From NCBI GenBank assembly GCA_012514535.1, contig JAAZAA010000331.1:1-34339 (forward strand): a stretch of DNA of 34,339 bases. The letters run 5' to 3'. The notes below the pieces were generated by a model. That model was not told the DNA's origin. It saw nothing but the letters and a program-made list of their open reading frames with translations, and did no database searches. Within the stretch, counting starts at the first letter, position 1, and each line of letters starts with the position of its first letter. Of the stretch, positions 4,942-27,956 are shown piece by piece. Position numbers and translations under genes: made by a program. Source of the stretch: Myxococcales bacterium (lineage in GTDB: Bacteria; Myxococcota_A; Polyangia; Polyangiales; Polyangiaceae).

Positions 4942-7578
4942 TCAGAAGTCGAGCTTGGCGCCGACCTGGAGCCAGCGCGGCGCGTTCGGGCGTGCGCCGT
5001 AAGGTCGCCGTGACACGATGTTCTCCGCGCCGAGCACGTTGCGCAGGTTCGCGTAGAAGCTGAGGTAGCGCAGGGCGCGCCAGCTCGCTCCGGCGTCGAG
5101 CCAGAACTGCGAGTCCGTGAGGAGATCGCTGCCGTGCACCGCGACCCCCTCACCGAGGGTGCACGTCCCGGCGCACTCGCGCATGCGTGAGATGTAGTTC
5201 GCCGAGATGACCCCGCCGACGCGACCGGCCTCCACCCCGACGGTGGCCACGAGCTGGTGCAGGGGCAGATAGGGGAGCTCGTCGCCGGAGCGCACGTCAC
5301 CCAGGCTGGGATCCGTGGAGGTGAAATCGCTGGCGAAGCTCGACTTGGTGAGCGTGTAGGCCACGGTGAAGGGGACCTTCACCGGACCCGCCGGGAGCTC
5401 GTGGGCGGCGAACGCCTCGAGGCCGTAGATGTGAGCGGCGCCCGCATCGACCTGGTGTCCCACGTCGTCCTGGACGCAGCCCGAAGCGATCGTGCAGATG
5501 CTCGTCAGGTTGGAGTAGTCGCTGAAAAATCCGATGAGTTCGAAGGTGGTGGCGCCCGACTTGAAGCGGCCGCCGGTCTCGTAGTTGACGCTGTACTCGG
5601 GGCGGGGCTGGCTTGGCGGAGCACCGTTGGCGCCCGGCTCGGGGGGAGCGGGTGGACTGAAGCCCCGGTGGACCCCCGCGAGCAGACCGAACGAGTCGGT
5701 GATGCCGTAGAACGCGCCCATGCCGGGGAGGACCGCGTAGATGAACTGATCCGCCGTGCCTCCCTGGACGAGGTTCGTCGTCTCCTGGCGGAGGAGCTCC
5801 ACCCGCACGCCGGGGGTCAGGGTGAGGTTGCGCCACGTGATGGCGTCCAGGGCGTGCAGCGCCAGCGCGTGGGTCTGGGCTTCGTTCTTGGCGGTGACCT
5901 GAGCAGCCTCTCCGCCGTGGACGAGCCTCCCGCCCACCATGTCGTAGGCGCTCTCGCTGTGGCGGCGTGCGATGGAGTCGTGGTGTAGGCGCAGCCCCGC
6001 CTCGATCCTGTGGCTGAGCGCGCCGCTGTCCACGGCCAGATCCAGCCGGGTCTGCACGCCTTGGCTGACGAAGGTGCGCGCGTTGGGACCGATGAACAAC
6101 CGTGTGCCGGGCGAGGCGGTGTCCTGCTCTCCGGTGAGCACGCCATAGAGCTCCTCGTGGCGGAGGGTGTCCGGCTCCCGGAGGACGCCGGCGACCGCCG
6201 CGCTCCCCAGCCGGTTGAGCTTCGTCCACGTGCGGGTCATCTCGTGCTTGTAGGCGCTCGTGGTCAGCTTGATGCCGGCGTCGGGCGCGTGGAGCACGTG
6301 GGTGGCCGCGAGGGCCAGCCGGTGGCTCTTCATCTGATCGAGGGCGGAGGCCGCGTAGCGCCGGTACGGATCCGCGCGGAAGTCCGCGTCCGTCTTCCCG
6401 AGGTACGTCTCGTTGGAGACCTCGTCGCTATAGGTGAGCTTGAAGCGGAACTCGTTGAGGACGTCGGCGCTGGGATCGAGGACGTGGGACGCCTTGGCGA
6501 CCCACTCGTAACGCGTGGAGCCCGTGTCGGCGCCGCTCGGCAGGTTCATGAAGCCGGTGTTCTGGAGCCGCACCCCCTCGAGCAAGAAGCCCGTCTGCCC
6601 GTCGCTCGATCCGAAGTGACCGTGGGCCTTGCTGTACCCGAAGTCGCCGAGGCCGAGATCGAGCCCGCCCGAGGTCTCGGTGGGGATCGGTCGGGAGATG
6701 AAATCGATGGCGCCGCCTACGGTCTGCGGGCCGTGGGCGATGGCCGAGGGCCCCTTGATGACCTGCACCTGCCCCATGCGCGTCATCAGCGGGAAGAAGT
6801 ACGCCGCAGGGGCGGAGTAGGGGGCGGGACCGAACAAGATCCCGTCTTCCATCAGCGTGAGCTTCTTGCTCCGGTCCGGGCTCACCCCCCGAATGCCGAT
6901 GTTCGGACGCAGCCCGATCCCGTCCTCCTGACGCACGTAGACGCCGGGTACCTGGAGCAGGATCGCTTGGGAGTCGTCGTACTCGAAGCGCTCGAGCTGT
7001 TTTCTCCCGATCACGTGGGCGGAGCCCGGTGTGCGGGCGAGGCGAGCCCCCGCGACGAAGATCTCCTCCTCGGGTTCTCCCGCCTCCGCGGCCTCGGGAG
7101 GAGTGTCGGACGACGAGGGGTCGGCAAAGCCCACCGAGTCGTCGCTGTCGCGCGCGGCCTCGTCGATCGTTGGCGTTGGCAGCTCCGTCGTGGGCGTGTC
7201 CGCCTCGGGCGCGGGAGCGGTGGGAGTGACCGAGGACTCTGGGGAGCCGTCGCCGGTGTCTCTCCGGGGTTCGTCGCCGGTCTCGGCCTGGTCGGCGGGA
7301 GGGGCCTGCGGATCGGCCGCGTCTTCGCTGGAGGGGCCGCCCTGTGCGGGCGCGTCCTCGGTGGGCGCCTCCTCCAGCGGGGCCTCTTCCGCGGGGGCTT
7401 CTTCCGCGGGGGCTTCTTCCGCGGGGGCCTCGGGAGGCGCCTCGGCGGCGTCCGGGGTGTCCGTCGGGTCGTCAGTGGGCGCTTGCGCCAGCGCCTGCGC
7501 CGGCAGGAGACACCAGGGCAGGGCCGCCAGCAGACGGAGGGACGGCGCAGAAGCTCGGAACGTTCGGCGAATCCACAT
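4942..7578 (-). CDS. TonB-dependent receptor (FecA-like) with Glu/Ala/Pro-rich N-terminal tail
   Basis: An 878-residue outer-membrane receptor. Residues 1-32 form a signal peptide (cleavage near AQALA). Residues 33-172 are a low-complexity acidic tail containing AEEAP repeats (about 53-77) and some two dozen Glu residues. A TonB-box-like EEIFVAG lies at 171-177. The plug follows (LLQVPGVYVRQEDG, IGIRGVSPDRSKK, GPQTVGGAIDFISRP), then a 22-strand-type barrel ending in the terminal Phe of Omp85-inserted barrels (GAKLDF). The plug resembles FecA/ferric-siderophore receptors. It is the last gene of a four-gene operon: its ATG lies 11 bases after the stop of the gamma-carboxylase-like gene. The imelysin-like partner and the operator-like sites upstream of the operon point to iron or another metal as cargo; the substrate itself is inferred. 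The long tail before the TonB box is atypical. Confidence 0.92.
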   Translation of the reverse strand: MWIRRTFRASAPSLRLLAALPWCLLPAQALAQAPTDDPTDTPDAAEAPPEAPAEEAPAEEAPAEEAPLEEAPTEDAPAQGGPSSEDAADPQAPPADQAETGDEPRRDTGDGSPESSVTPTAPAPEADTPTTELPTPTIDEAARDSDDSVGFADPSSSDTPPEAAEAGEPEEEIFVAGARLARTPGSAHVIGRKQLERFEYDDSQAILLQVPGVYVRQEDGIGLRPNIGIRGVSPDRSKKLTLMEDGILFGPAPYSAPAAYFFPLMTRMGQVQVIKGPSAIAHGPQTVGGAIDFISRPIPTETSGGLDLGLGDFGYSKAHGHFGSSDGQTGFLLEGVRLQNTGFMNLPSGADTGSTRYEWVAKASHVLDPSADVLNEFRFKLTYSDEVSNETYLGKTDADFRADPYRRYAASALDQMKSHRLALAATHVLHAPDAGIKLTTSAYKHEMTRTWTKLNRLGSAAVAGVLREPDTLRHEELYGVLTGEQDTASPGTRLFIGPNARTFVSQGVQTRLDLAVDSGALSHRIEAGLRLHHDSIARRHSESAYDMVGGRLVHGGEAAQVTAKNEAQTHALALHALDAITWRNLTLTPGVRVELLRQETTNLVQGGTADQFIYAVLPGMGAFYGITDSFGLLAGVHRGFSPPAPPEPGANGAPPSQPRPEYSVNYETGGRFKSGATTFELIGFFSDYSNLTSICTIASGCVQDDVGHQVDAGAAHIYGLEAFAAHELPAGPVKVPFTVAYTLTKSSFASDFTSTDPSLGDVRSGDELPYLPLHQLVATVGVEAGRVGGVISANYISRMRECAGTCTLGEGVAVHGSDLLTDSQFWLDAGASWRALRYLSFYANLRNVLGAENIVSRRPYGARPNAPRWLQVGAKLDF
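7367..7426 (-). repeat. 15-bp in-frame tandem repeat encoding AEEAP units
   Basis: Four head-to-tail 15-base units; the three at 7382-7426 are nearly identical (GCTTCTTCCGCGGGG on the plus strand, one differing at a single base) and that at 7367-7381 is diverged. They encode the E-E-A-P repeats in the periplasmic tail of the TonB receptor. Such in-frame repeats can change copy number by slippage without breaking the frame. Confidence 0.85.
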
Positions 7579-7589
7579 GGTGGAGCTCT

Positions 7590-9134
7590 TCACAGGACGG
7601 GCCGCGTACGGGGCGGTGCTTGCGGCGGGGCGGGCAGGACCCAGTGGGCGCGGCCGAGCCCGTCGCGGATGGTCGTCAGGTCCACGTCCGGATCGATGAG
7701 CCGCGCGCTCCGGCGGCCGTTGAGGGTGACGTGGGAGTCGGCGCGGACCTCGACGGGGCCGAGCCCGCGCTGGTCGAGATCCCGCTGGATGTGATGGGCG
7801 AGCTGGAGGATGAGGTCGGGCTGACTCGACATCTCCGCCTCCTGCAGGGGGTTCAGGTACTCGCTGGGGCTCACGTGCCAGGTGCGACCGGTCTCCTTGT
7901 TGCGAACGATGAAGGTCGTCCCGCCACCCTTGACCCGCACCATCACGCGCCAGGAGAACCGCATGCCCTGCTCGTGCCACAGCACGTTCCCGCCATAGGC
8001 GAGGAACCGTAGCGGCAAGGTGACCTGAACCAGGCAATACACGACGCCGAGGGTGACCGCGGCGCGCTGCCAGGCGGTGATGGGGCGCAGAGCGTGCGTC
8101 GCCCGTGATGACCCGCCGCTGTCGGGGAGAGCCTCCCGGAGAGACGCGCTGGCTCGAGCTCCTTCACGACCGAGCAGCGAGCGGAGCCACCTCAGCGCCC
8201 CGCGGAGCGCACCCAGGAGGGTGCGCGGCCAGCCGGGAGAGAAGAACACGAGGGCCGCGCACACCATGATGAACGGAAACATCCCGATGTTGAACAGGAG
8301 CTTCGTCATCGTATGAAACGCGATCACGACCAGGTAGGCCCAGGGGCGCGTCTTGCGATGCAGCAGCCACCACACGATCGTCGTGTCGAAGAGAAAGCCG
8401 CACCAGCTCATGATGAGCGGGACCTCCTCGAGCGTGAACAGCTTGCCGAGGATCGGGAGCTTCGTGTTCGCGCCGAGCCAGATCCGCAGCGGTTGTCCGT
8501 GCAGGAGCCAGTCGGTCTGGAACTTGGCGAGCCCGGCGAAGGTGTAGACGATGCCGACCTGTGCGCGGAACAGGTAGTGCCACGCGGCGGATACGGTGCC
8601 GTCGTTGCGGGGTGCTCCCGTGCCCGTCGCTGGCAGCGTCCCGGCGGCGCGAGCCGCGCGGAGCCGGCGTGAGATCCATGCGTCGACGGACCAGAGGCGC
8701 TGTGCGGGCGACACGGCGAGCAGCCACGTGAGCAGCGCGACCAAATAGTAGTGGTTCAGGTAGACGCTGACGTCGAGCAGTTGAATGTAAGTGAGCCCGG
8801 CGGCGAGGAGCGGCGTGACGAGCCGAAAGGCGAGCCCGACGGTCATGGCGACCGCGAGCCCGAACAGCACCCAGAACAGCAGGTGCATGTTCGCGCGGGA
8901 GAGCGGCTCGACCCACTCGAAGCCCCAGTACTTGAACCGGAAGTTGGGCTCGACGAGCAGCTTGTCGACCCAGCCGTACACGAGGAAGCGCTGCATCGAC
9001 ACCGCAATGAGCGTGCCCAGCGCCATGCGGAAGGCCGCGAGCCAGGCCGCGTCCACGGGGCGAAAGGATGCTTGGAGTGCTCGCTCGAGGAGCCCCGGTG
9101 AGGTGGGGCGCGCCTCGCTGGCGGACTCAGTCAT
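7590..9134 (-). CDS. Vitamin K-dependent gamma-carboxylase-like (HTTM) membrane protein
   Basis: A 514-residue protein whose N-terminal half has several hydrophobic helices, the HTTM domain. Motifs align with eukaryotic gamma-glutamyl carboxylase. LNHYYLVALLTW (His128) plus RLWSVDAW matches the human NNHSYLYGLL ... WSVDG region. YTFAGLAKFQTDW (Lys204) matches the human AGVKKLDADW segment that holds catalytic Lys218. After about residue 375 a soluble domain begins, with MRFSWRVM and YLNPLQEAEM, which parallel human YSWDMM and YLNPGVF. The human enzyme converts Glu to gamma-carboxy-Glu using reduced vitamin K, CO2 and oxygen; whether this homologue does so is not known. Its start overlaps the imelysin-like stop by 8 bases and the TonB receptor follows after 11 bases, so it belongs to a tightly coupled operon. 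By topology the soluble domain would face the periplasm. Confidence 0.85.
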   Translation of the reverse strand: MTESASEARPTSPGLLERALQASFRPVDAAWLAAFRMALGTLIAVSMQRFLVYGWVDKLLVEPNFRFKYWGFEWVEPLSRANMHLLFWVLFGLAVAMTVGLAFRLVTPLLAAGLTYIQLLDVSVYLNHYYLVALLTWLLAVSPAQRLWSVDAWISRRLRAARAAGTLPATGTGAPRNDGTVSAAWHYLFRAQVGIVYTFAGLAKFQTDWLLHGQPLRIWLGANTKLPILGKLFTLEEVPLIMSWCGFLFDTTIVWWLLHRKTRPWAYLVVIAFHTMTKLLFNIGMFPFIMVCAALVFFSPGWPRTLLGALRGALRWLRSLLGREGARASASLREALPDSGGSSRATHALRPITAWQRAAVTLGVVYCLVQVTLPLRFLAYGGNVLWHEQGMRFSWRVMVRVKGGGTTFIVRNKETGRTWHVSPSEYLNPLQEAEMSSQPDLILQLAHHIQRDLDQRGLGPVEVRADSHVTLNGRRSARLIDPDVDLTTIRDGLGRAHWVLPAPPQAPPRTRPVL

Positions 9135-10476
9135 TGTCGCCCTCGACTCCGGCGGGGGGCGAGAGGTTCAGGGGGCTGCCCGCGCCCGCGAGGAACTCGT
9201 TCTTGATCAGGTCCGACAGACCCTTGATGCTGGCGTGCAGCGCCAGGAAGTCCTCGGTGGTGGCCTCGTGAAAGGGCGGGAAGGCGTCCACCGCTGCCTG
9301 GGCTACCTTCCAGGCGGCGATCATGTCGGCCGCGAGATCGCCGTGCCCGGCGGCGATCAGCCAATCGTCGAAGCCCACGCCAGCGCCGTCGCCACCGCAC
9401 CCCTCGAACAGGCGCTGAAAGGAGCGCAGGTTCGCGCGGAGCGCCTGCACCGCCTGCAAGGCGAAGGGCGTCTCGAATCCGTCGAGCGGCGCTGCTGGGT
9501 TGAGCCCCGCGGGGTGGCCCACCTTCCAGTCCTTCACCTGCCGCTCGATGTACACGAAGGACCAGGCGACGATGTTCAGGGCCTCCTGGTCTCGATCCGT
9601 GGCCGGCTTGTCGTAGCCTTCCGCGCGGATCAGCGTGTCTCGGAAGTTGCCCCCGTCGGCGCTCCAGCGCGACCGCAGCTGCTGAGTGAGCGCGAGCACG
9701 TCCTCCGCCAGCGCCCTCGCGTACGCCGCCTTGCGTTCGGCGATCTCGGCGGCGTCGAGGGTGCTCCAGGTCTTGCCGGCGCTGGACGTCGGCGTGCACG
9801 CGTGGTCGTCACCGGGGTAAAACAGCAAGTATTCGAGGGCGAAGAGCCCCCGGGCGGTGATCAGCGCCCGGTCGATGCCCTCGTCGAGGTAACGCTGATT
9901 GGCGACCTGCTCCTCGACGCGGCAGCGGCTGATGCTGGGCCACGCGTAGATCCGATCCCGGTAACCCGCGCCGTGATACGGATCCTGAGTCGCCGAGCCC
10001 GCAGGTCCGAACTGGAACAGCTCCGCGTGCGACCAGCTCTCCATCGCCCGGACCCACGCCTCGCGGGCCGCGGCGAGGTTCGCGTCGCTGGGCTTCTCTG
10101 CCCACGCGACGACCCGATCGCGCAGCAGGGTCGCGGCGCTTTCGAAGTCGCAGTAGTGCCACTCGGCGCACGAAGCCGAGGCCTCCAGCAGGCGGCGTTT
10201 GCTGAAGGAGCCCTCGACCAGAGGCGGCGGTCCACACTCGAGCCCGGTCGGGGGCGCTCCCGCCGATCCTCCGAAGGACATCCCGCCCGAGGCGCGGCTC
10301 CCCGCGGCTCCGGTCTTGGTGCCCCCGCTCGCGCCACCGCTACCGAAGACCTCCTCCGGGTCGGGAGTTCGATTGCAGGCTCCGAAAGCCACCCCCCCCA
10401 GCGCGAGGCAGGTGAGAGCGGCGCAGACCCTGCGTCGGATCATGCGCGGTGAAGAGAAAGCGTTCGGTGAGGTCAC
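9127..10476 (-). CDS. Imelysin-like (M75/IrpA family) lipoprotein with altered GxHxxE motif
   Basis: A 449-residue protein with a lipoprotein signal (VAFGAC, Cys34), a Gly/Ser-rich linker (45-78) and an imelysin domain. AREAWVRAMESW followed by ELFQFGP is the conserved first-repeat motif, and the second is present as RGLFALEYLLF (210-220). In the family that second segment is GxHxxE, the presumed metal site; here His is replaced by Phe212. Imelysin-like proteins (IrpA, EfeO relatives, Leptospira LruB) are periplasmic or surface proteins of iron uptake. The GTG at 10476 has GGAG 5 bases upstream; ATG 10443 is in frame but has no ribosome site. The gene sits between the delta-60 lipoprotein and the carboxylase-like gene and overlaps the latter, which ties it to the TonB receptor system. 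Confidence 0.9.
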   Translation of the reverse strand: MTSPNAFSSPRMIRRRVCAALTCLALGGVAFGACNRTPDPEEVFGSGGASGGTKTGAAGSRASGGMSFGGSAGAPPTGLECGPPPLVEGSFSKRRLLEASASCAEWHYCDFESAATLLRDRVVAWAEKPSDANLAAAREAWVRAMESWSHAELFQFGPAGSATQDPYHGAGYRDRIYAWPSISRCRVEEQVANQRYLDEGIDRALITARGLFALEYLLFYPGDDHACTPTSSAGKTWSTLDAAEIAERKAAYARALAEDVLALTQQLRSRWSADGGNFRDTLIRAEGYDKPATDRDQEALNIVAWSFVYIERQVKDWKVGHPAGLNPAAPLDGFETPFALQAVQALRANLRSFQRLFEGCGGDGAGVGFDDWLIAAGHGDLAADMIAAWKVAQAAVDAFPPFHEATTEDFLALHASIKGLSDLIKNEFLAGAGSPLNLSPPAGVEGDND

Positions 10477-10524
10477 GCGGGCTCCGGGGGAGAGACAGCG
10501 ATGAGTGGGGACGAATGAAGCAGA

Positions 10525-10558
10525 GCCGGCGGGGGCACCCAGACGTACCCCCGCCGGC
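10525..10558 (-). terminator. Strong intercistronic hairpin inside the metal-uptake operon
   Basis: A perfect 11-bp GC-only stem (GCCGGCGGGGG at 10525-10535, CCCCCGCCGGC at 10548-10558) with a 12-base loop. It lies 14 bases after the stop of the delta-60 lipoprotein gene and 48 bases before the imelysin start. No U-tract follows on the minus strand, so it may be a partial terminator or an mRNA-protecting stem that raises expression of the first gene relative to the rest. Confidence 0.75.
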
Positions 10559-10572
10559 GAAGGAGGATTGGT

Positions 10573-12132
10573 TCAGTCCTGGGAGAGCTCGAAGATGGCC
10601 AGGAGCCCACCCTGAGAAGAGGCCGCCACGCGGGCCCCGTCGGGGGAGAGCGCGGCCTTGAAGAAGGGCCGCTCGTGGGTCGTGTAGTCGCTCGACGCGT
10701 CCAGCACCAGCATGCCGTAGTCGCCAAAGCTCTCGTCGAGACCGCCGTCTTTCTGGACCATGAAGACGGCCGCGTAGTCGTTGTAGCAACCGACGTGGAG
10801 CGTGCGCTGGTCGGGGAGGAGCACCAGATCGCGTCCGTTGTCACGGTGCTGCCGGCCGCCCTCCCACGTGGGCGAGGGGTCCTCTTCGCTCTGGATCGCG
10901 AAGGCGCCGTCGTCGCCGTAGGTGGTGTCGAAACCGTCGTCGAGCACGCCGAAGCTGACCACGTCGTTCTCGTTCGTGTTGACCAGGAAGTTCGAGACGC
11001 CGTAGCCGGTCGTGATGTAGCGGTTGCCCACCTTCACCGCCGAGTAGGCCTCCGACATGGCCCCGGCGCCGCTGAAGGGCTGGAATCGGGTGAGCCCATC
11101 CTGATCCGTCGTCGTGCCGAAGCCGAAGGTGCCATCGAGCTGCCCGGAGGGGGTGAGGCGCATCAAGGCGACGTGGTTGCCTTCGCCGAAGTTCGTGTAG
11201 CCCGCCGAGAGGATCTTGCCGTCGGCCTCCACGAAGCCTCGGCGCGTGTTGTCCGCGGCGTTCGCGCCGTCCACGTCGACCCCGAAGGCCTGCCCGCCGT
11301 TGAAGCTGGCGTCCGCGGAGAAGTCGCTCGCGAGGACGCGCGCGACCCAGCGGTCGTTGTCCGTGCGCTGCTCGTCCGAGGCGTCGAGATCGCCCTTCCG
11401 GGGCGCGCCATGGGCGAAGACGACGATCTTCTCGTCGTCGCCGGTCGCGTCGAGCGCGATGCCCCAGGACGTGTACGCGGGGGGAGCGTCGCCGGGCCAG
11501 TCCGCGAAGGGCGGCGTGGTCATGGCGTCGAGGTCCGCCTCGGACCAGCCGAACTCCACGAACGTCGGCTCGGTCACGAGGGCTCCCTCGTCGTCGAACT
11601 TCATGAGGAAGACCCGGCCGTCGAGCGTGCCGTGCACGACCAGGTCGCCGTTCGCGAGCTCCACGACTCCGTAGGAAGCATCGCTCCCGGCGCCGAGGTT
11701 GCGAACGACGACGCCGTCGTCGCCGAAGCTCTCGTCGATGTTCCCCTCTGTGTCGAGGCGCCACAGCGCGACGGCAGGGTCGCCCTCGTCGTCGACCGTG
11801 CCCGAGACGTAGAGCTTGCCGTCCGCGGAGTAGGTGAGCCCATAGAGGTTGCTCGCCCCGGGGATGAGCAGGGTCTTGACGAGGTCGCCCTCCTCGCCCC
11901 GAGCGCCCCCCTCGCCGGCGGTCCCACCACCGGCGTCCTTACCTCCGGTGCCTCCGGTGGCGCCGCCGTCGCCGCCGCTCGACTTCTTGCCTCCGGTGGA
12001 GGCGTCTCCTCCCGAGGAGGTGTCCCCCCCGGTGTTGCTGCTGCCGCTGTTTTCGTCGTCGCTGCCGCAGCCCGCGACGAGAGCCCCGCTGACGAGCAAC
12101 GCGCCCATCCCGTGAAGAAAAACCGTACGCAT
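10573..12132 (-). CDS. Delta-60-repeat (beta-propeller-like) lipoprotein
   Basis: A 519-residue lipoprotein: signal peptide with lipobox LVAGC (Cys22), then a Gly/Ser/Thr-rich linker (about 28-80) and a domain with at least five delta-60-type units. Examples are WRLDTEGNIDESFGDDG, LTPSGQLDGTFGFG, GVLDDGFDTTYGDDG and QKDGGLDESFGDYG. Each has the L-D-x-x-F-G-x-x-G turn that marks this family (DUF5122), which forms beta-propellers. ATG 12132 begins the signal peptide. It is the first gene of the operon with imelysin, the gamma-carboxylase-like protein and the TonB receptor, and lies directly behind two operator-like sites, so it is probably induced with them. A surface-exposed cargo-binding or scaffold role is inference; many delta-60 proteins have no known function. 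Confidence 0.85.
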   Translation of the reverse strand: MRTVFLHGMGALLVSGALVAGCGSDDENSGSSNTGGDTSSGGDASTGGKKSSGGDGGATGGTGGKDAGGGTAGEGGARGEEGDLVKTLLIPGASNLYGLTYSADGKLYVSGTVDDEGDPAVALWRLDTEGNIDESFGDDGVVVRNLGAGSDASYGVVELANGDLVVHGTLDGRVFLMKFDDEGALVTEPTFVEFGWSEADLDAMTTPPFADWPGDAPPAYTSWGIALDATGDDEKIVVFAHGAPRKGDLDASDEQRTDNDRWVARVLASDFSADASFNGGQAFGVDVDGANAADNTRRGFVEADGKILSAGYTNFGEGNHVALMRLTPSGQLDGTFGFGTTTDQDGLTRFQPFSGAGAMSEAYSAVKVGNRYITTGYGVSNFLVNTNENDVVSFGVLDDGFDTTYGDDGAFAIQSEEDPSPTWEGGRQHRDNGRDLVLLPDQRTLHVGCYNDYAAVFMVQKDGGLDESFGDYGMLVLDASSDYTTHERPFFKAALSPDGARVAASSQGGLLAIFELSQD

Positions 12133-12261
12133 CGTGAACCTACTCTCCGTGGATGTCGCCGTCGGACGGCCGCGAGGCGCCCGGCGGAGGAGGTCGACGG
12201 CGATCGTGTGCCGCAGCCTCTGGATTACCTGGGGCGGCTAGTACCAGAGCGTCGGGGAAAT

Positions 12262-12276
12262 TGAAAGTCGTTTTCA
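12262..12276 (-). promoter_or_regulatory. Fur-box-like operator, proximal site
   Basis: On the minus strand this reads TGAAAACGACTTTCA. It fits the 7-1-7 Fur arrangement (TGATAAT-N-ATTATCA) at 10 of 14 positions and has perfect TGAAA/TTTCA outer arms. It lies 130 bases upstream of the delta-60 lipoprotein start. Confidence 0.5.
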
Positions 12277-25829: not shown

Positions 25830-27956
25830 TCAGAAGTACAGGGCCGCGGAGAGGAGGGCGCTGCGCGGCTCGCCCGCCGTGATGTGGCGCGCCGGGATGA
25901 GCGACGTCGGCGCCCCGGAGTCGAAGTGGGACGCGTAGACGAACTCTCCCTCGTTCCAGGAGACCCCCAGGAGGTTCCTCACGTCCAACGTGAGCTCGAG
26001 CTGCGCCCTGCGCACTCCCAGCCGCAGATCCGTGACCAGGGCGTCCCGCCCGAACTCCCCGTAGGGCAGGGGGCGGCGCACCAGCCCCTGCATGCCGATC
26101 CCGAAATGGGCGCGCACCGTCCGCCCCGCCCAGGTGCCGAGGATCGGGCGCGCAGCGAGGTCCGCGCGGACGACCAGCTGCGGCACGTACGGGACGAGCT
26201 GCCCCGCCTCGAAGCGCCCTCCGGCCTCGCGGAACGCCGCGCGAGTCAAGGTGGCGCCGAGTCCCGACGCGAACCAGCCGAGGGTCGTCTCCAGATGGGC
26301 GGCGACGCCCAGGCGTCGAGTCCCCGGCACGGCCTCGTTTCGGCCCACCCGCTCGTCGAACACCACGTCATCGGTGAGATCCGTGGCATAGGCGGCCACG
26401 CTGGCCTCCTGGGGCCCCTCCTTCCACCGCAAGCCCAGCTCCGCGGAGCGGACCTCGGTGAACGGAATCCGAGTCCCGTCTGCCACGCCGCGTGCCTGGG
26501 GCGTACGAAAGCCGCGTCCCCAGCTGGCAATCCCGTGGAGGTGCGGGGTGATGGCCCAGTCCGCGACCAATTTTTCGCCGAGGAACGCGCCCTGGCTCTC
26601 CCGATGGGGCGTCGGAGCGAGTCGATCGTGGACCGCGAACGAAGCGACGTCCGCGCGCACTCCGCCGCGCACGAGCAGGCGTCGGATCGGGTGGAGCTCC
26701 GCGTCGACGTAGGCGCCGAGGGTGCTGGTCCGCAGGCGCGCGTCGATCAGCGTGGCGAAGGGGCGGCCGCCGTGATCCTGATACCGCTGGCTCTGATCGA
26801 TCCAGTCGTTGCGCGCCGCGAGGCCGACCTCGACGGCGTCGTCCGCCCGGAAGACCTTGACCCGCTGACGATAGCGGGCGCGCGTCCCCACCGCGACGGA
26901 GTCGTTGTGCTGCCGCGTCGTGTCACCGAGCTCCGGATTCACGAGGAATCCGGTATAATCGTAGGAGAGGCTCAGGGTGCGCAGGACCACGTAGGGGGTG
27001 AGCTCGAGCTCCGTCGCGCCGTCGTCGTGGAGCAAGCTGGCGACGAGCTGAGTCCGAGTCGAGCGGCCCCCCTGGCCGCCGTGATAGGCATCGAACCGAT
27101 CGAGGACGCCCCGGTCCACGTCCCGCTGCCGGAGCACCCCTGCGGCACCGAAGCTCCCCGCGTAGCTGGACGCCATCAGGCGCAGCTGCAGATCGTCGGC
27201 GACGGGGTGGACGAGCTGGGCGATCGCCGAAGCGCGCTGGGCGGCCCGCCCGACGCCGAACCCGGCGCTGTCGAACAGCTCGAACGCGCCGAAGGTCTCC
27301 GGTGACGCGCCCTCGGGGTGGTAGGCGAGGAACAGGCGCTGTGTGTCGAAGGAGCCGTGGCTCGCCCGTACCGTGGTGCCCGGGACGTCATAGCCCAGGG
27401 CGAAGCGCATCGTGCCAGCGACGGCAAAGTCCCCCTGGCTCGGATCATACGTGCCAGGCAGAGCTTCGATGCGGCGCACCACCTCGGGCATCAAGAAGTG
27501 GAGGTCCGCGTAGCCCTGCCCGTGCACGTTGCCGATCTCGTTCACGGGGGCTCCGGCCACCCAGATCTCCAGATCTTGGCCGTGCACGGCGTCGAAACCC
27601 CGGAAGAAGATCTGGTGCGCCTTGCCCTGCCCGCCGTGCTGCGAGACGAACACCCCCGGGACGGTACGGAGCAGCTCGCTCCCCGTGCTCTGGGGCGCCG
27701 CGCCCAGCAAGCGACGGTCACGGACGATGGCGGAGGCGGCCCTCGGTCGACGTTCCCCGGTGACGACGATCTCGGTCTCTGCCCCCTCGTCGTCGGGCGC
27801 CGCGTGTCCCTCGGAGACCTCCTCCGCCGGCGCGTCGTGGGCCCGGGCGTTGCACGGGAGCGCCAGCCCGGCGAGGACGAGCGCTCCGAAGCACGGCGGA
27901 GGATGGAGGAAGCGGCGTCCGTTCCCCTCCCGTCGTCGGAAGCGGGCCCGGAACAT
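25830..27956 (-). CDS. TonB-dependent receptor, second system
   Basis: A 708-residue outer-membrane receptor. A basic, hydrophobic signal peptide ends near ARA (about 39). A short His/Asp/Glu-rich tail leads to the TonB-box-like TEIVVTGERR, then the plug (LLRTVPGVFVSQHGGQGKAHQ, IFFRGFDAVHGQDLEIWV, GNVHGQGYADLHFLMPE, ALPGTYDPSQGDFAVAG) and a barrel ending LLSAALYF. The plug carries an unusually high number of His residues. The substrate is not evident. Its ATG begins nine bases after the stop of the desaturase gene, so the two are co-transcribed. The family resembles receptors of Myxococcota with the conserved VHGQGYADLHF motif, but I cannot name a ligand; a metal is a reasonable guess because metal-binding lipoproteins lie nearby. 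Confidence 0.92.
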   Translation of the reverse strand: MFRARFRRREGNGRRFLHPPPCFGALVLAGLALPCNARAHDAPAEEVSEGHAAPDDEGAETEIVVTGERRPRAASAIVRDRRLLGAAPQSTGSELLRTVPGVFVSQHGGQGKAHQIFFRGFDAVHGQDLEIWVAGAPVNEIGNVHGQGYADLHFLMPEVVRRIEALPGTYDPSQGDFAVAGTMRFALGYDVPGTTVRASHGSFDTQRLFLAYHPEGASPETFGAFELFDSAGFGVGRAAQRASAIAQLVHPVADDLQLRLMASSYAGSFGAAGVLRQRDVDRGVLDRFDAYHGGQGGRSTRTQLVASLLHDDGATELELTPYVVLRTLSLSYDYTGFLVNPELGDTTRQHNDSVAVGTRARYRQRVKVFRADDAVEVGLAARNDWIDQSQRYQDHGGRPFATLIDARLRTSTLGAYVDAELHPIRRLLVRGGVRADVASFAVHDRLAPTPHRESQGAFLGEKLVADWAITPHLHGIASWGRGFRTPQARGVADGTRIPFTEVRSAELGLRWKEGPQEASVAAYATDLTDDVVFDERVGRNEAVPGTRRLGVAAHLETTLGWFASGLGATLTRAAFREAGGRFEAGQLVPYVPQLVVRADLAARPILGTWAGRTVRAHFGIGMQGLVRRPLPYGEFGRDALVTDLRLGVRRAQLELTLDVRNLLGVSWNEGEFVYASHFDSGAPTSLIPARHITAGEPRSALLSAALYF

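What the first reader, a model, noticed from the sequence alone, without database searches (positions are those of the whole stretch)
4942..12132. Gamma-carboxylase-like enzyme built into a TonB/imelysin uptake operon
Four coupled minus-strand genes encode a delta-60 lipoprotein, an imelysin-like lipoprotein, a vitamin K-dependent carboxylase homologue (HTTM) and a FecA-like TonB receptor. The carboxylase homologue keeps residues equivalent to human His160 and Lys218 and the soluble YLNP region. Myxococcota use menaquinone (established knowledge), which could supply the cofactor. The operon suggests a receptor system whose components, or whose cargo, are modified by an envelope enzyme. This is inference from co-location and motifs.
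Basis: partly seen in the sequence, partly recalled or inferred. Interest (0 to 1): 0.85.

Follow-up and report, generated by a model that had tools for sequence, protein, structure and literature searches.

The report
Vitamin K carboxylase in iron-uptake operon
A bacterial relative of the human blood-clotting enzyme that uses vitamin K sits in a widespread, apparently iron-controlled uptake operon beside an imelysin lipoprotein, and in some relatives it is repeatedly swapped for an unrelated oxygen-using membrane enzyme, which gives a rare and testable clue to what bacterial vitamin K carboxylases are for.

Summary
The four genes are real: delta-60 lipoprotein, imelysin lipoprotein, full GGCX-type carboxylase (VKGC: HTTM plus lumenal domain) and TonB receptor. 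The VKGC keeps GGCX's fold, catalytic Lys218, His160, Asn159 and the vitamin K pocket. The arrangement recurs: 134 of 161 VKGC loci have an imelysin directly upstream, usually as DUF4856-imelysin-VKGC-TonB (Bacteroidota, Myxococcota, others), otherwise imelysin-dihaem oxidase-imelysin-VKGC. Fur boxes precede many copies, and in Riemerella all four genes are published as Fur-regulated. Imelysin, not the TonB receptor, is the constant partner; it ends in a near-invariant D-x-D tail that is disordered in its solved relative. New here: in 28 of 32 Myxococcota operons of this type that lack VKGC, a di-iron fatty-acid-hydroxylase-type membrane protein sits next to the imelysin or receptor, sometimes fused to one of them. 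The two enzymes are never adjacent together and swapped at least four times. Most likely both modify imelysin (perhaps its acidic tail) or a shared membrane substrate for iron capture. The substrate is inferred, not shown. Recurrent, interesting, apparently undescribed in the papers searched.

The parts
10573..12132 (-). delta-60 repeat (DUF5122 beta-propeller) lipoprotein, lipobox LVAGC; takes the place that a DUF4856 lipoprotein has in most other copies of the operon
   Evidence: DUF4856 in relatives; D60 relatives
9127..10476 (-). imelysin (Peptidase_M75) lipoprotein of the IPPA/PA4372 type: GxxxxE (G210..E215, the usual His replaced by F212), Cys34 lipobox, C-terminal GDND
   Evidence: model fold VIA-align Z 31.0 to 3pf0
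9130..9138 (-). codons of the C-terminal D447-N448-D449 (D-x-D) tail, near-invariant in the family
   Evidence: 132 of 134 VKGC-adjacent imelysins end this way (one of them, L161 from Chloroflexi, with 3 further residues); 5 of about 9,200 other ORFs do
7590..9134 (-). vitamin K-dependent gamma-carboxylase homologue (HTTM + VKGC lumenal domain), 514 aa; K204 = human K218, H128 = H160, N127 = N159
4942..7578 (-). TonB-dependent outer-membrane receptor, acidic N-terminal tail of about 150 aa before the plug
12257..12275 (-). candidate Fur box GAAAACGACTTTCAATTTC, 12 of 19 matches, 125 nt upstream of the delta-60 start; weak here (p about 0.07), strong in many sister operons
10525..10558 (-). 14-bp G+C-rich hairpin between delta-60 and imelysin, possible attenuator or processing site
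   Evidence: MFE -48.1, z -3.2 for the 111-nt stretch

Best explanation
The locus is an iron-acquisition operon of the imelysin kind with an added membrane modification enzyme. The TonB receptor and two lipoproteins (imelysin and a beta-propeller or DUF4856 protein) form the outer-membrane capture complex. The VKGC sits in the inner membrane with its lumenal-type domain in the periplasm, oxidises menaquinol with O2 using K204/H128, and uses the resulting base to modify an acidic residue of the newly exported imelysin, most plausibly an Asp of its disordered C-terminal D-x-D tail, making a better metal ligand. In sister operons a di-iron hydroxylase-type enzyme does the equivalent job, for example by hydroxylation. 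Shown here: operon, recurrence, intact cofactor centre, invariant tail, enzyme swap, Fur-type sites in relatives. Inferred: that imelysin is the substrate, the residue modified, the chemistry on it, and iron as cargo.
For: Imelysin is directly upstream of VKGC in 134 of 161 loci, while the TonB receptor and first lipoprotein are absent from the 27 type B operons. N159, H160 and K218 equivalents are 147/147, and vitamin K pocket F286/F294/F299/W223 equivalents 145-147/147; N159 and H160 hold the substrate side chain in GGCX (PMC12589487). GGCX is the only significant fold match, TMq up to 0.75. D447 and D449 are among only 5-6 invariant imelysin columns and are 100% kept in both VKGC and hydroxylase operons. 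The tail region (384-389) is disordered in 3pf0 (PMC3143127) and low-confidence in the model. PF04116 hydroxylase occurs in 28 of 32 VKGC-less operons of this type and next to none of the imelysin-VKGC pairs; at least 4 independent switches. Fur-like boxes: 60 of 124 operons at p<=0.05, up to 18/19 matches; all four genes Fur/iron-regulated in Riemerella (PMC5609570). MenD present.
Against: The D-x-D tail is also kept where no VKGC is present, and in Psychrobacter 3pf0 (...NSTDGD), so it does not depend on VKGC. GGCX residues that bind the peptide backbone or Glu (N158, R436, partly Y395) and the propeptide exosite are not conserved. Hydroxylases of the PF04116 superfamily usually act on lipids or other hydrophobic molecules with the active site on the cytoplasmic face (established knowledge), whereas GGCX's faces the lumen; a shared protein residue is then awkward. 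Imelysins from VKGC and hydroxylase operons show no distinguishing column. VKOR is not enriched with VKGC (25/40 against 28/40 genomes), so no classical vitamin K cycle is needed. Four VKGC-less operons have neither enzyme nearby (L201, L274, L357, L362).
Confidence: 0.38

Rival explanations
1. VKGC and the di-iron hydroxylase act on a membrane-soluble substrate rather than on a protein side chain: the lipid anchor of the imelysin or DUF4856 lipoproteins, a membrane lipid, or a quinone-like metallophore handled by the system.
For: The two enzymes are interchangeable but probably work on opposite membrane faces; PF04116 relatives hydroxylate lipids (established knowledge). The surrounding proteins are lipoproteins, with Cys34 invariant in A4. 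VKGC keeps the hydrophobic quinone pocket but not the peptide-binding residues.
Against: N159/H160, which hold a carboxylate side chain in GGCX, are invariant. No VKGC homologue is known to act on lipids (own knowledge).
Confidence: 0.25
2. The VKGC is a quinol oxidase/epoxidase without a protein substrate, a local redox or O2-consuming step that helps iron reduction or protects the uptake system.
For: The cofactor half of the active site is fully conserved and the substrate-recognition half is not. It is replaced by another O2-using metalloenzyme. Type B operons also carry a di-haem oxidoreductase. From memory, the Leptospira homologue was reported to epoxidise vitamin K without carboxylating protein; that paper was not available here.
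Against: Invariant N159/H160; tight pairing with one lipoprotein rather than with redox partners.
Confidence: 0.17
3. One reading: the TonB receptor tail (or the cargo) is the carboxylated substrate.
For: The window's receptor has a Glu-rich N-terminal tail and is coupled to VKGC; hydroxylase-TonB fusions exist.
Against: The tail is not Glu-rich or conserved across the family and is replaced by other sequence in Bacteroidota; type B operons lack the TonB gene.
Confidence: 0.1

Closest known systems
Human gamma-glutamyl carboxylase GGCX (PDB 9l6q, 9bvk and others)
   Same: Both Pfam domains, same fold, K218/H160/N159 and the vitamin K pocket
   Different: 514 aa against about 758; homology ends near human residue 505, so the rest of the propeptide-binding and arch regions is missing; N158, K217, R436, Y425 and the C99-C450 disulfide are not kept; sits in an iron-type operon
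Imelysin operon PA4370-PA4373 (P. aeruginosa) and IPPA 3pf0 (Xu et al. 2011, PMC3143127)
   Same: IPPA-type imelysin with GxxxxE and (in 3pf0) C-terminal D-x-D; Fur-regulated; type B operons look like the imelysin-dihaem oxidase-imelysin set with VKGC added
   Different: No VKGC or hydroxylase is described there; the 4-gene type has no second imelysin and adds a DUF4856 or delta-60 lipoprotein plus a TonB receptor
Riemerella anatipestifer RAYM_09779-09794 (PMC5609570)
   Same: Successive locus tags annotated TonB receptor, vitamin K-dependent carboxylase, imelysin, hypothetical; all iron- and Fur-regulated in RNA-seq
   Different: Listed in a table, with no discussion of the carboxylase found; its sequence was not examined here
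EfeUOB ferrous iron system
   Same: EfeO contains an imelysin-like domain; model Z 22.6 to EfeO 7wgu
   Different: EfeO has a cupredoxin domain and a permease partner; neither is here

Membership tests
GGCX / VKGC family | HTTM plus VKGC lumenal domain | tested here: met
   PF05090 246.6 bits, PF22777 161.9 bits, both over cut-off
GGCX / VKGC family | GGCX fold | tested here: met
   AlphaFold pLDDT 91.3, pTM 0.90; all 16 Foldseek matches at E<=0.001 are GGCX, TMq 0.60-0.75
GGCX / VKGC family | Catalytic base K218, H160 and vitamin K pocket | tested here: met
   K204, H128, N127, W209, F273, F281, F286; 145-147 of 147
GGCX / VKGC family | Peptide/Glu pocket N158, Y395, R436 | tested here: not met
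   L126, M391, E434; this bears on substrate specificity, not on homology
GGCX / VKGC family | Propeptide-binding exosite and C99-C450 disulfide | tested here: not met
   Y425 aligns to H420, C99/C450 to F67/H448, homology ends near human 505
GGCX / VKGC family | Vitamin K hydroquinone-dependent carboxylase activity | not testable with these tools
   needs enzyme assay
Imelysin, IPPA/PA4372 subfamily | Imelysin fold | tested here: met
   PF09375 E 4.8e-27; VIA-align Z 31.0, rmsd 2.7, 300 residues aligned to 3pf0
Imelysin, IPPA/PA4372 subfamily | GxHxxE replaced by GxxxxE | tested here: met
   G210-L-F-A-L-E215 in the window; definition in PMC3143127
FecA-type ferric citrate receptor | FecA equivalog score and N-terminal signalling domain | tested here: not met
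   NF041676 106.5 bits against 1100; no signalling domain in Pfam scan
Fur regulon | Fur box upstream of the operon | tested here: inconclusive
   window 12/19, p 0.067; 60 of 124 sister operons p<=0.05
Classical vitamin K cycle | VKOR accompanies the carboxylase | tested here: not met
   PF07884 present in the own genome (2 places) but not associated with VKGC: 25/40 against 28/40

The most novel reading that the evidence does not exclude
A new kind of post-translational metal-site maturation: two unrelated O2-using membrane enzymes (menaquinol-dependent VKGC or a di-iron hydroxylase) interchangeably modify the C-terminal D-x-D tail of a surface imelysin lipoprotein, for example to beta-carboxy- or beta-hydroxyaspartate, creating a protein-borne siderophore-like ligand for TonB-coupled iron uptake. 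This would be the main role of bacterial vitamin K carboxylases.
Probability: 0.2. Interest if true: 0.95.

Novelty: new variant of a known kind. Interest (0 to 1): 0.74.

Why it matters
Bacterial homologues of the human clotting carboxylase have no accepted substrate. This survey gives them one dominant genomic context, an apparently iron-regulated imelysin/TonB operon found in several phyla, and narrows the candidate substrate to the imelysin partner. The repeated swap with a di-iron membrane hydroxylase is a natural experiment: whatever VKGC does here, a hydroxylase can apparently replace it. Both point to a specific test (mass of the imelysin) that can be done in non-pathogenic laboratory strains.

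Tried and rejected
(1) D-x-D tail as a VKGC-dependent signature: it looked perfect (132/134), but a check of VKGC-less operons and PDB 3pf0 showed the tail is a trait of the imelysin subfamily, independent of VKGC. (2) Solo VKGC genes: searched for D-x-D-ending neighbours; none was adjacent. (3) VKOR co-occurrence as support for a vitamin K cycle: not enriched. (4) Residues that distinguish imelysins of VKGC and hydroxylase operons: none. (5) TonB tail as common substrate: not Glu-rich across the family. (6) Futalosine menaquinone pathway in the own genome: no match; the MenD route is present. (7) Literature: only one held paper has both 'imelysin' and 'gamma-carboxylase'; none of the listed papers links imelysin with a fatty acid hydroxylase. 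(8) Complex prediction of VKGC with the imelysin tail was not possible with the tools. Caveats: ORFs were called mechanically and many loci come from metagenome assemblies. At least five loci of the second set (L115, L129, L134, L145, L149) lie on contigs already in the first set, so 161 is slightly inflated. The hydroxylase profile was built from 7 sequences of these operons; a histidine-box pattern search added only two hits not beside an imelysin-VKGC pair (L054 and L091).

Full report
Observation. The region 4942-12132 (minus strand) encodes four proteins in the order delta-60 lipoprotein, imelysin, VKGC, TonB receptor. Imelysin and VKGC overlap by 8 nt and VKGC and TonB are 11 nt apart; delta-60 and imelysin are 96 nt apart with a strong hairpin between them. 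The window lies in a 5.8-Mb draft genome whose nearest named relatives at this locus are Sorangium, Labilithrix and other Polyangiaceae-like Myxococcota. The VKGC is not a bare HTTM protein: it matches both HTTM and the VKGC lumenal domain far over cut-off and human GGCX over residues 23-502 at E 4e-33. AlphaFold gives pLDDT 91.3 and pTM 0.90, and Foldseek's only significant matches in the PDB are 16 GGCX chains, TMq up to 0.75.

Active site. Residues were mapped with an alignment of human GGCX (sequence taken) with 147 bacterial VKGCs and compared with the roles given in the 2025 cryo-EM paper PMC12589487. Kept: K218 (base, K204 here), H160 (H128), N159 (N127), W223, and the three phenylalanines of the naphthoquinone pocket. 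Not kept: N158 (L), R436 (E/Q/M), Y395 (M, Y or F), K217 (A), Y425 of the propeptide site, and the C99-C450 disulfide. Homology ends near human residue 505, so the rest of the propeptide and arch regions is absent. The quinol chemistry should therefore be possible, with a different way of recognising a substrate.

Recurrence. PF22777 is found in 69 of 284 Myxococcota genomes. Neighbourhoods of 80 places in these plus 80 loci from a scan of 84,980 species (which reported 581 encoded relatives) and the window were mapped. Of 161 loci, 134 have an imelysin gene directly upstream of VKGC. Two architectures account for these: type A (107), DUF4856 or delta-60 lipoprotein - imelysin - VKGC - usually TonB receptor, in Myxococcota, Bacteroidota, a Planctomycetota and a Pseudomonadota record and others; and type B (27), imelysin - di-haem oxidoreductase (PF06537) - imelysin - VKGC, including a record titled Dehalococcoidia (L161), with a similar setting in one titled Chloroflexi (L141). 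Several of the other 27 are contig ends that break the operon. A sample of 148 genomes from Bacteroidota drawn without regard to VKGC gave 31 loci with D-x-D-tailed imelysins; 30 are followed by VKGC and a TonB receptor and one is the di-haem type without VKGC. The first lipoprotein is a DUF4856 protein in most copies; the window's delta-60 propeller is a replacement seen in its close relatives.

Regulation. A 19-bp Fur consensus scan of upstream regions gave 60 of 124 operons with p<=0.05 against about 6 expected, with matches up to 18 of 19 bases (mononucleotide shuffles). The window's own best site is weak (12/19). In Riemerella anatipestifer the genes RAYM_09794-09779 (hypothetical, imelysin, VKGC, TonB receptor, successive locus tags) are iron- and Fur-regulated in RNA-seq (PMC5609570). 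I found no paper that discusses the association.

The imelysin tail. Imelysins next to VKGC are only about 20-45% identical to the window's, yet 132 of 134 end in D-x-D (GDND, NDGD, SGDGD and the like; the two exceptions are a frame-shifted and a truncated ORF). Only 5 of about 9,200 other ORFs end so, and the first imelysin of type B operons does not, apart from one rearranged locus (L142) where it lies nearest to VKGC. I first took this for a carboxylase signature and then tested it: the tail is also present in operons without VKGC and in 3pf0 from Psychrobacter, where residues 384-389 at the C-terminus were disordered (PMC3143127). So it marks the IPPA-type imelysin subfamily, not VKGC. It remains the only strictly invariant acidic feature of the one constant partner.

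The swap. Operons with the same lipoprotein, D-x-D imelysin and TonB receptor but no VKGC were collected: 22 loci in a first set and 10 in a set fetched afterwards as a test. A PF04116 fatty-acid-hydroxylase-superfamily protein adjoins the imelysin or receptor in 20 and 8 of them, with the histidine-box residues conserved in 20 of 20. It is a separate gene, or fused in frame ahead of the TonB receptor, or fused ahead of the imelysin lipobox. None of the 134 imelysin-VKGC pairs or the 30 Bacteroidota operons has it beside the imelysin. On a tree of 108 imelysins the hydroxylase label needs 7 changes, at least 4 forced by well-supported branches, including inside the window's own clade (L266, L275). 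Four VKGC-less operons have neither enzyme nearby (L201, L274, L357, L362). The two enzymes are thus alternatives in the same slot.

Mechanism. Shown: the operon, its spread, an intact cofactor centre, the invariant tail, the swap, and iron/Fur control in relatives. Inferred: that imelysin is the substrate and that an acidic residue, perhaps the tail, is modified for metal binding. For: imelysin is the only constant partner; N159 and H160, which hold the substrate carboxylate in GGCX, are invariant. Against: the tail exists without VKGC; hydroxylases of this superfamily usually act on hydrophobic molecules at the cytoplasmic face (and the fusions to signal peptides place the hydroxylase C-terminus on the cytoplasmic side, an inference), while VKGC should face the periplasm, which favours a membrane-soluble substrate. 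I hold the imelysin model at 0.38 and the lipid/quinone model at 0.25. A VKOR-based vitamin K cycle is not required; menaquinone can be made by the MenD route.

Verdict. Known parts, a known kind of operon, and a new and recurrent enzyme slot with an enzyme swap that I did not find described in the papers searched.

Noticed in passing
L206:2028-5183, L207:5499-8696, L268:4093-7251, L272:8325-11348, L267:2847-6017, L195:4918-8310, L271:8291-11725: In-frame fusions of a PF04116 membrane hydroxylase to a TonB-dependent receptor across an internal signal-peptide-like segment; in L199, L264, L269 and L358 the hydroxylase is fused ahead of the imelysin.
   Followed up: partly
L107:6002-11892, L101:930-3160, L055: Another VKGC context: the gene directly follows a TamB-family gene (Pfam TamB in L107), with no imelysin nearby.
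   Followed up: partly
L058:9459-13648: A solo VKGC overlaps the end of a molybdopterin oxidoreductase/NADH-quinone-oxidoreductase-like subunit gene.
   Followed up: no
L141, L161: Records titled Chloroflexi and Dehalococcoidia carry the imelysin-dihaem oxidase-imelysin genes with VKGC; the D-x-D is followed by a few further residues, and in L141 VKGC runs convergently.
   Followed up: no
window 10525-10558: Strong G+C-rich hairpin between the delta-60 and imelysin genes.
   Followed up: partly
window 25830-27956: A second TonB-receptor-like ORF on the minus strand.
   Followed up: no
G000:C151:4769-5572 (L003): A second HTTM match in the same genome; the genome's only lumenal-domain match is the window's VKGC.
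   Followed up: no
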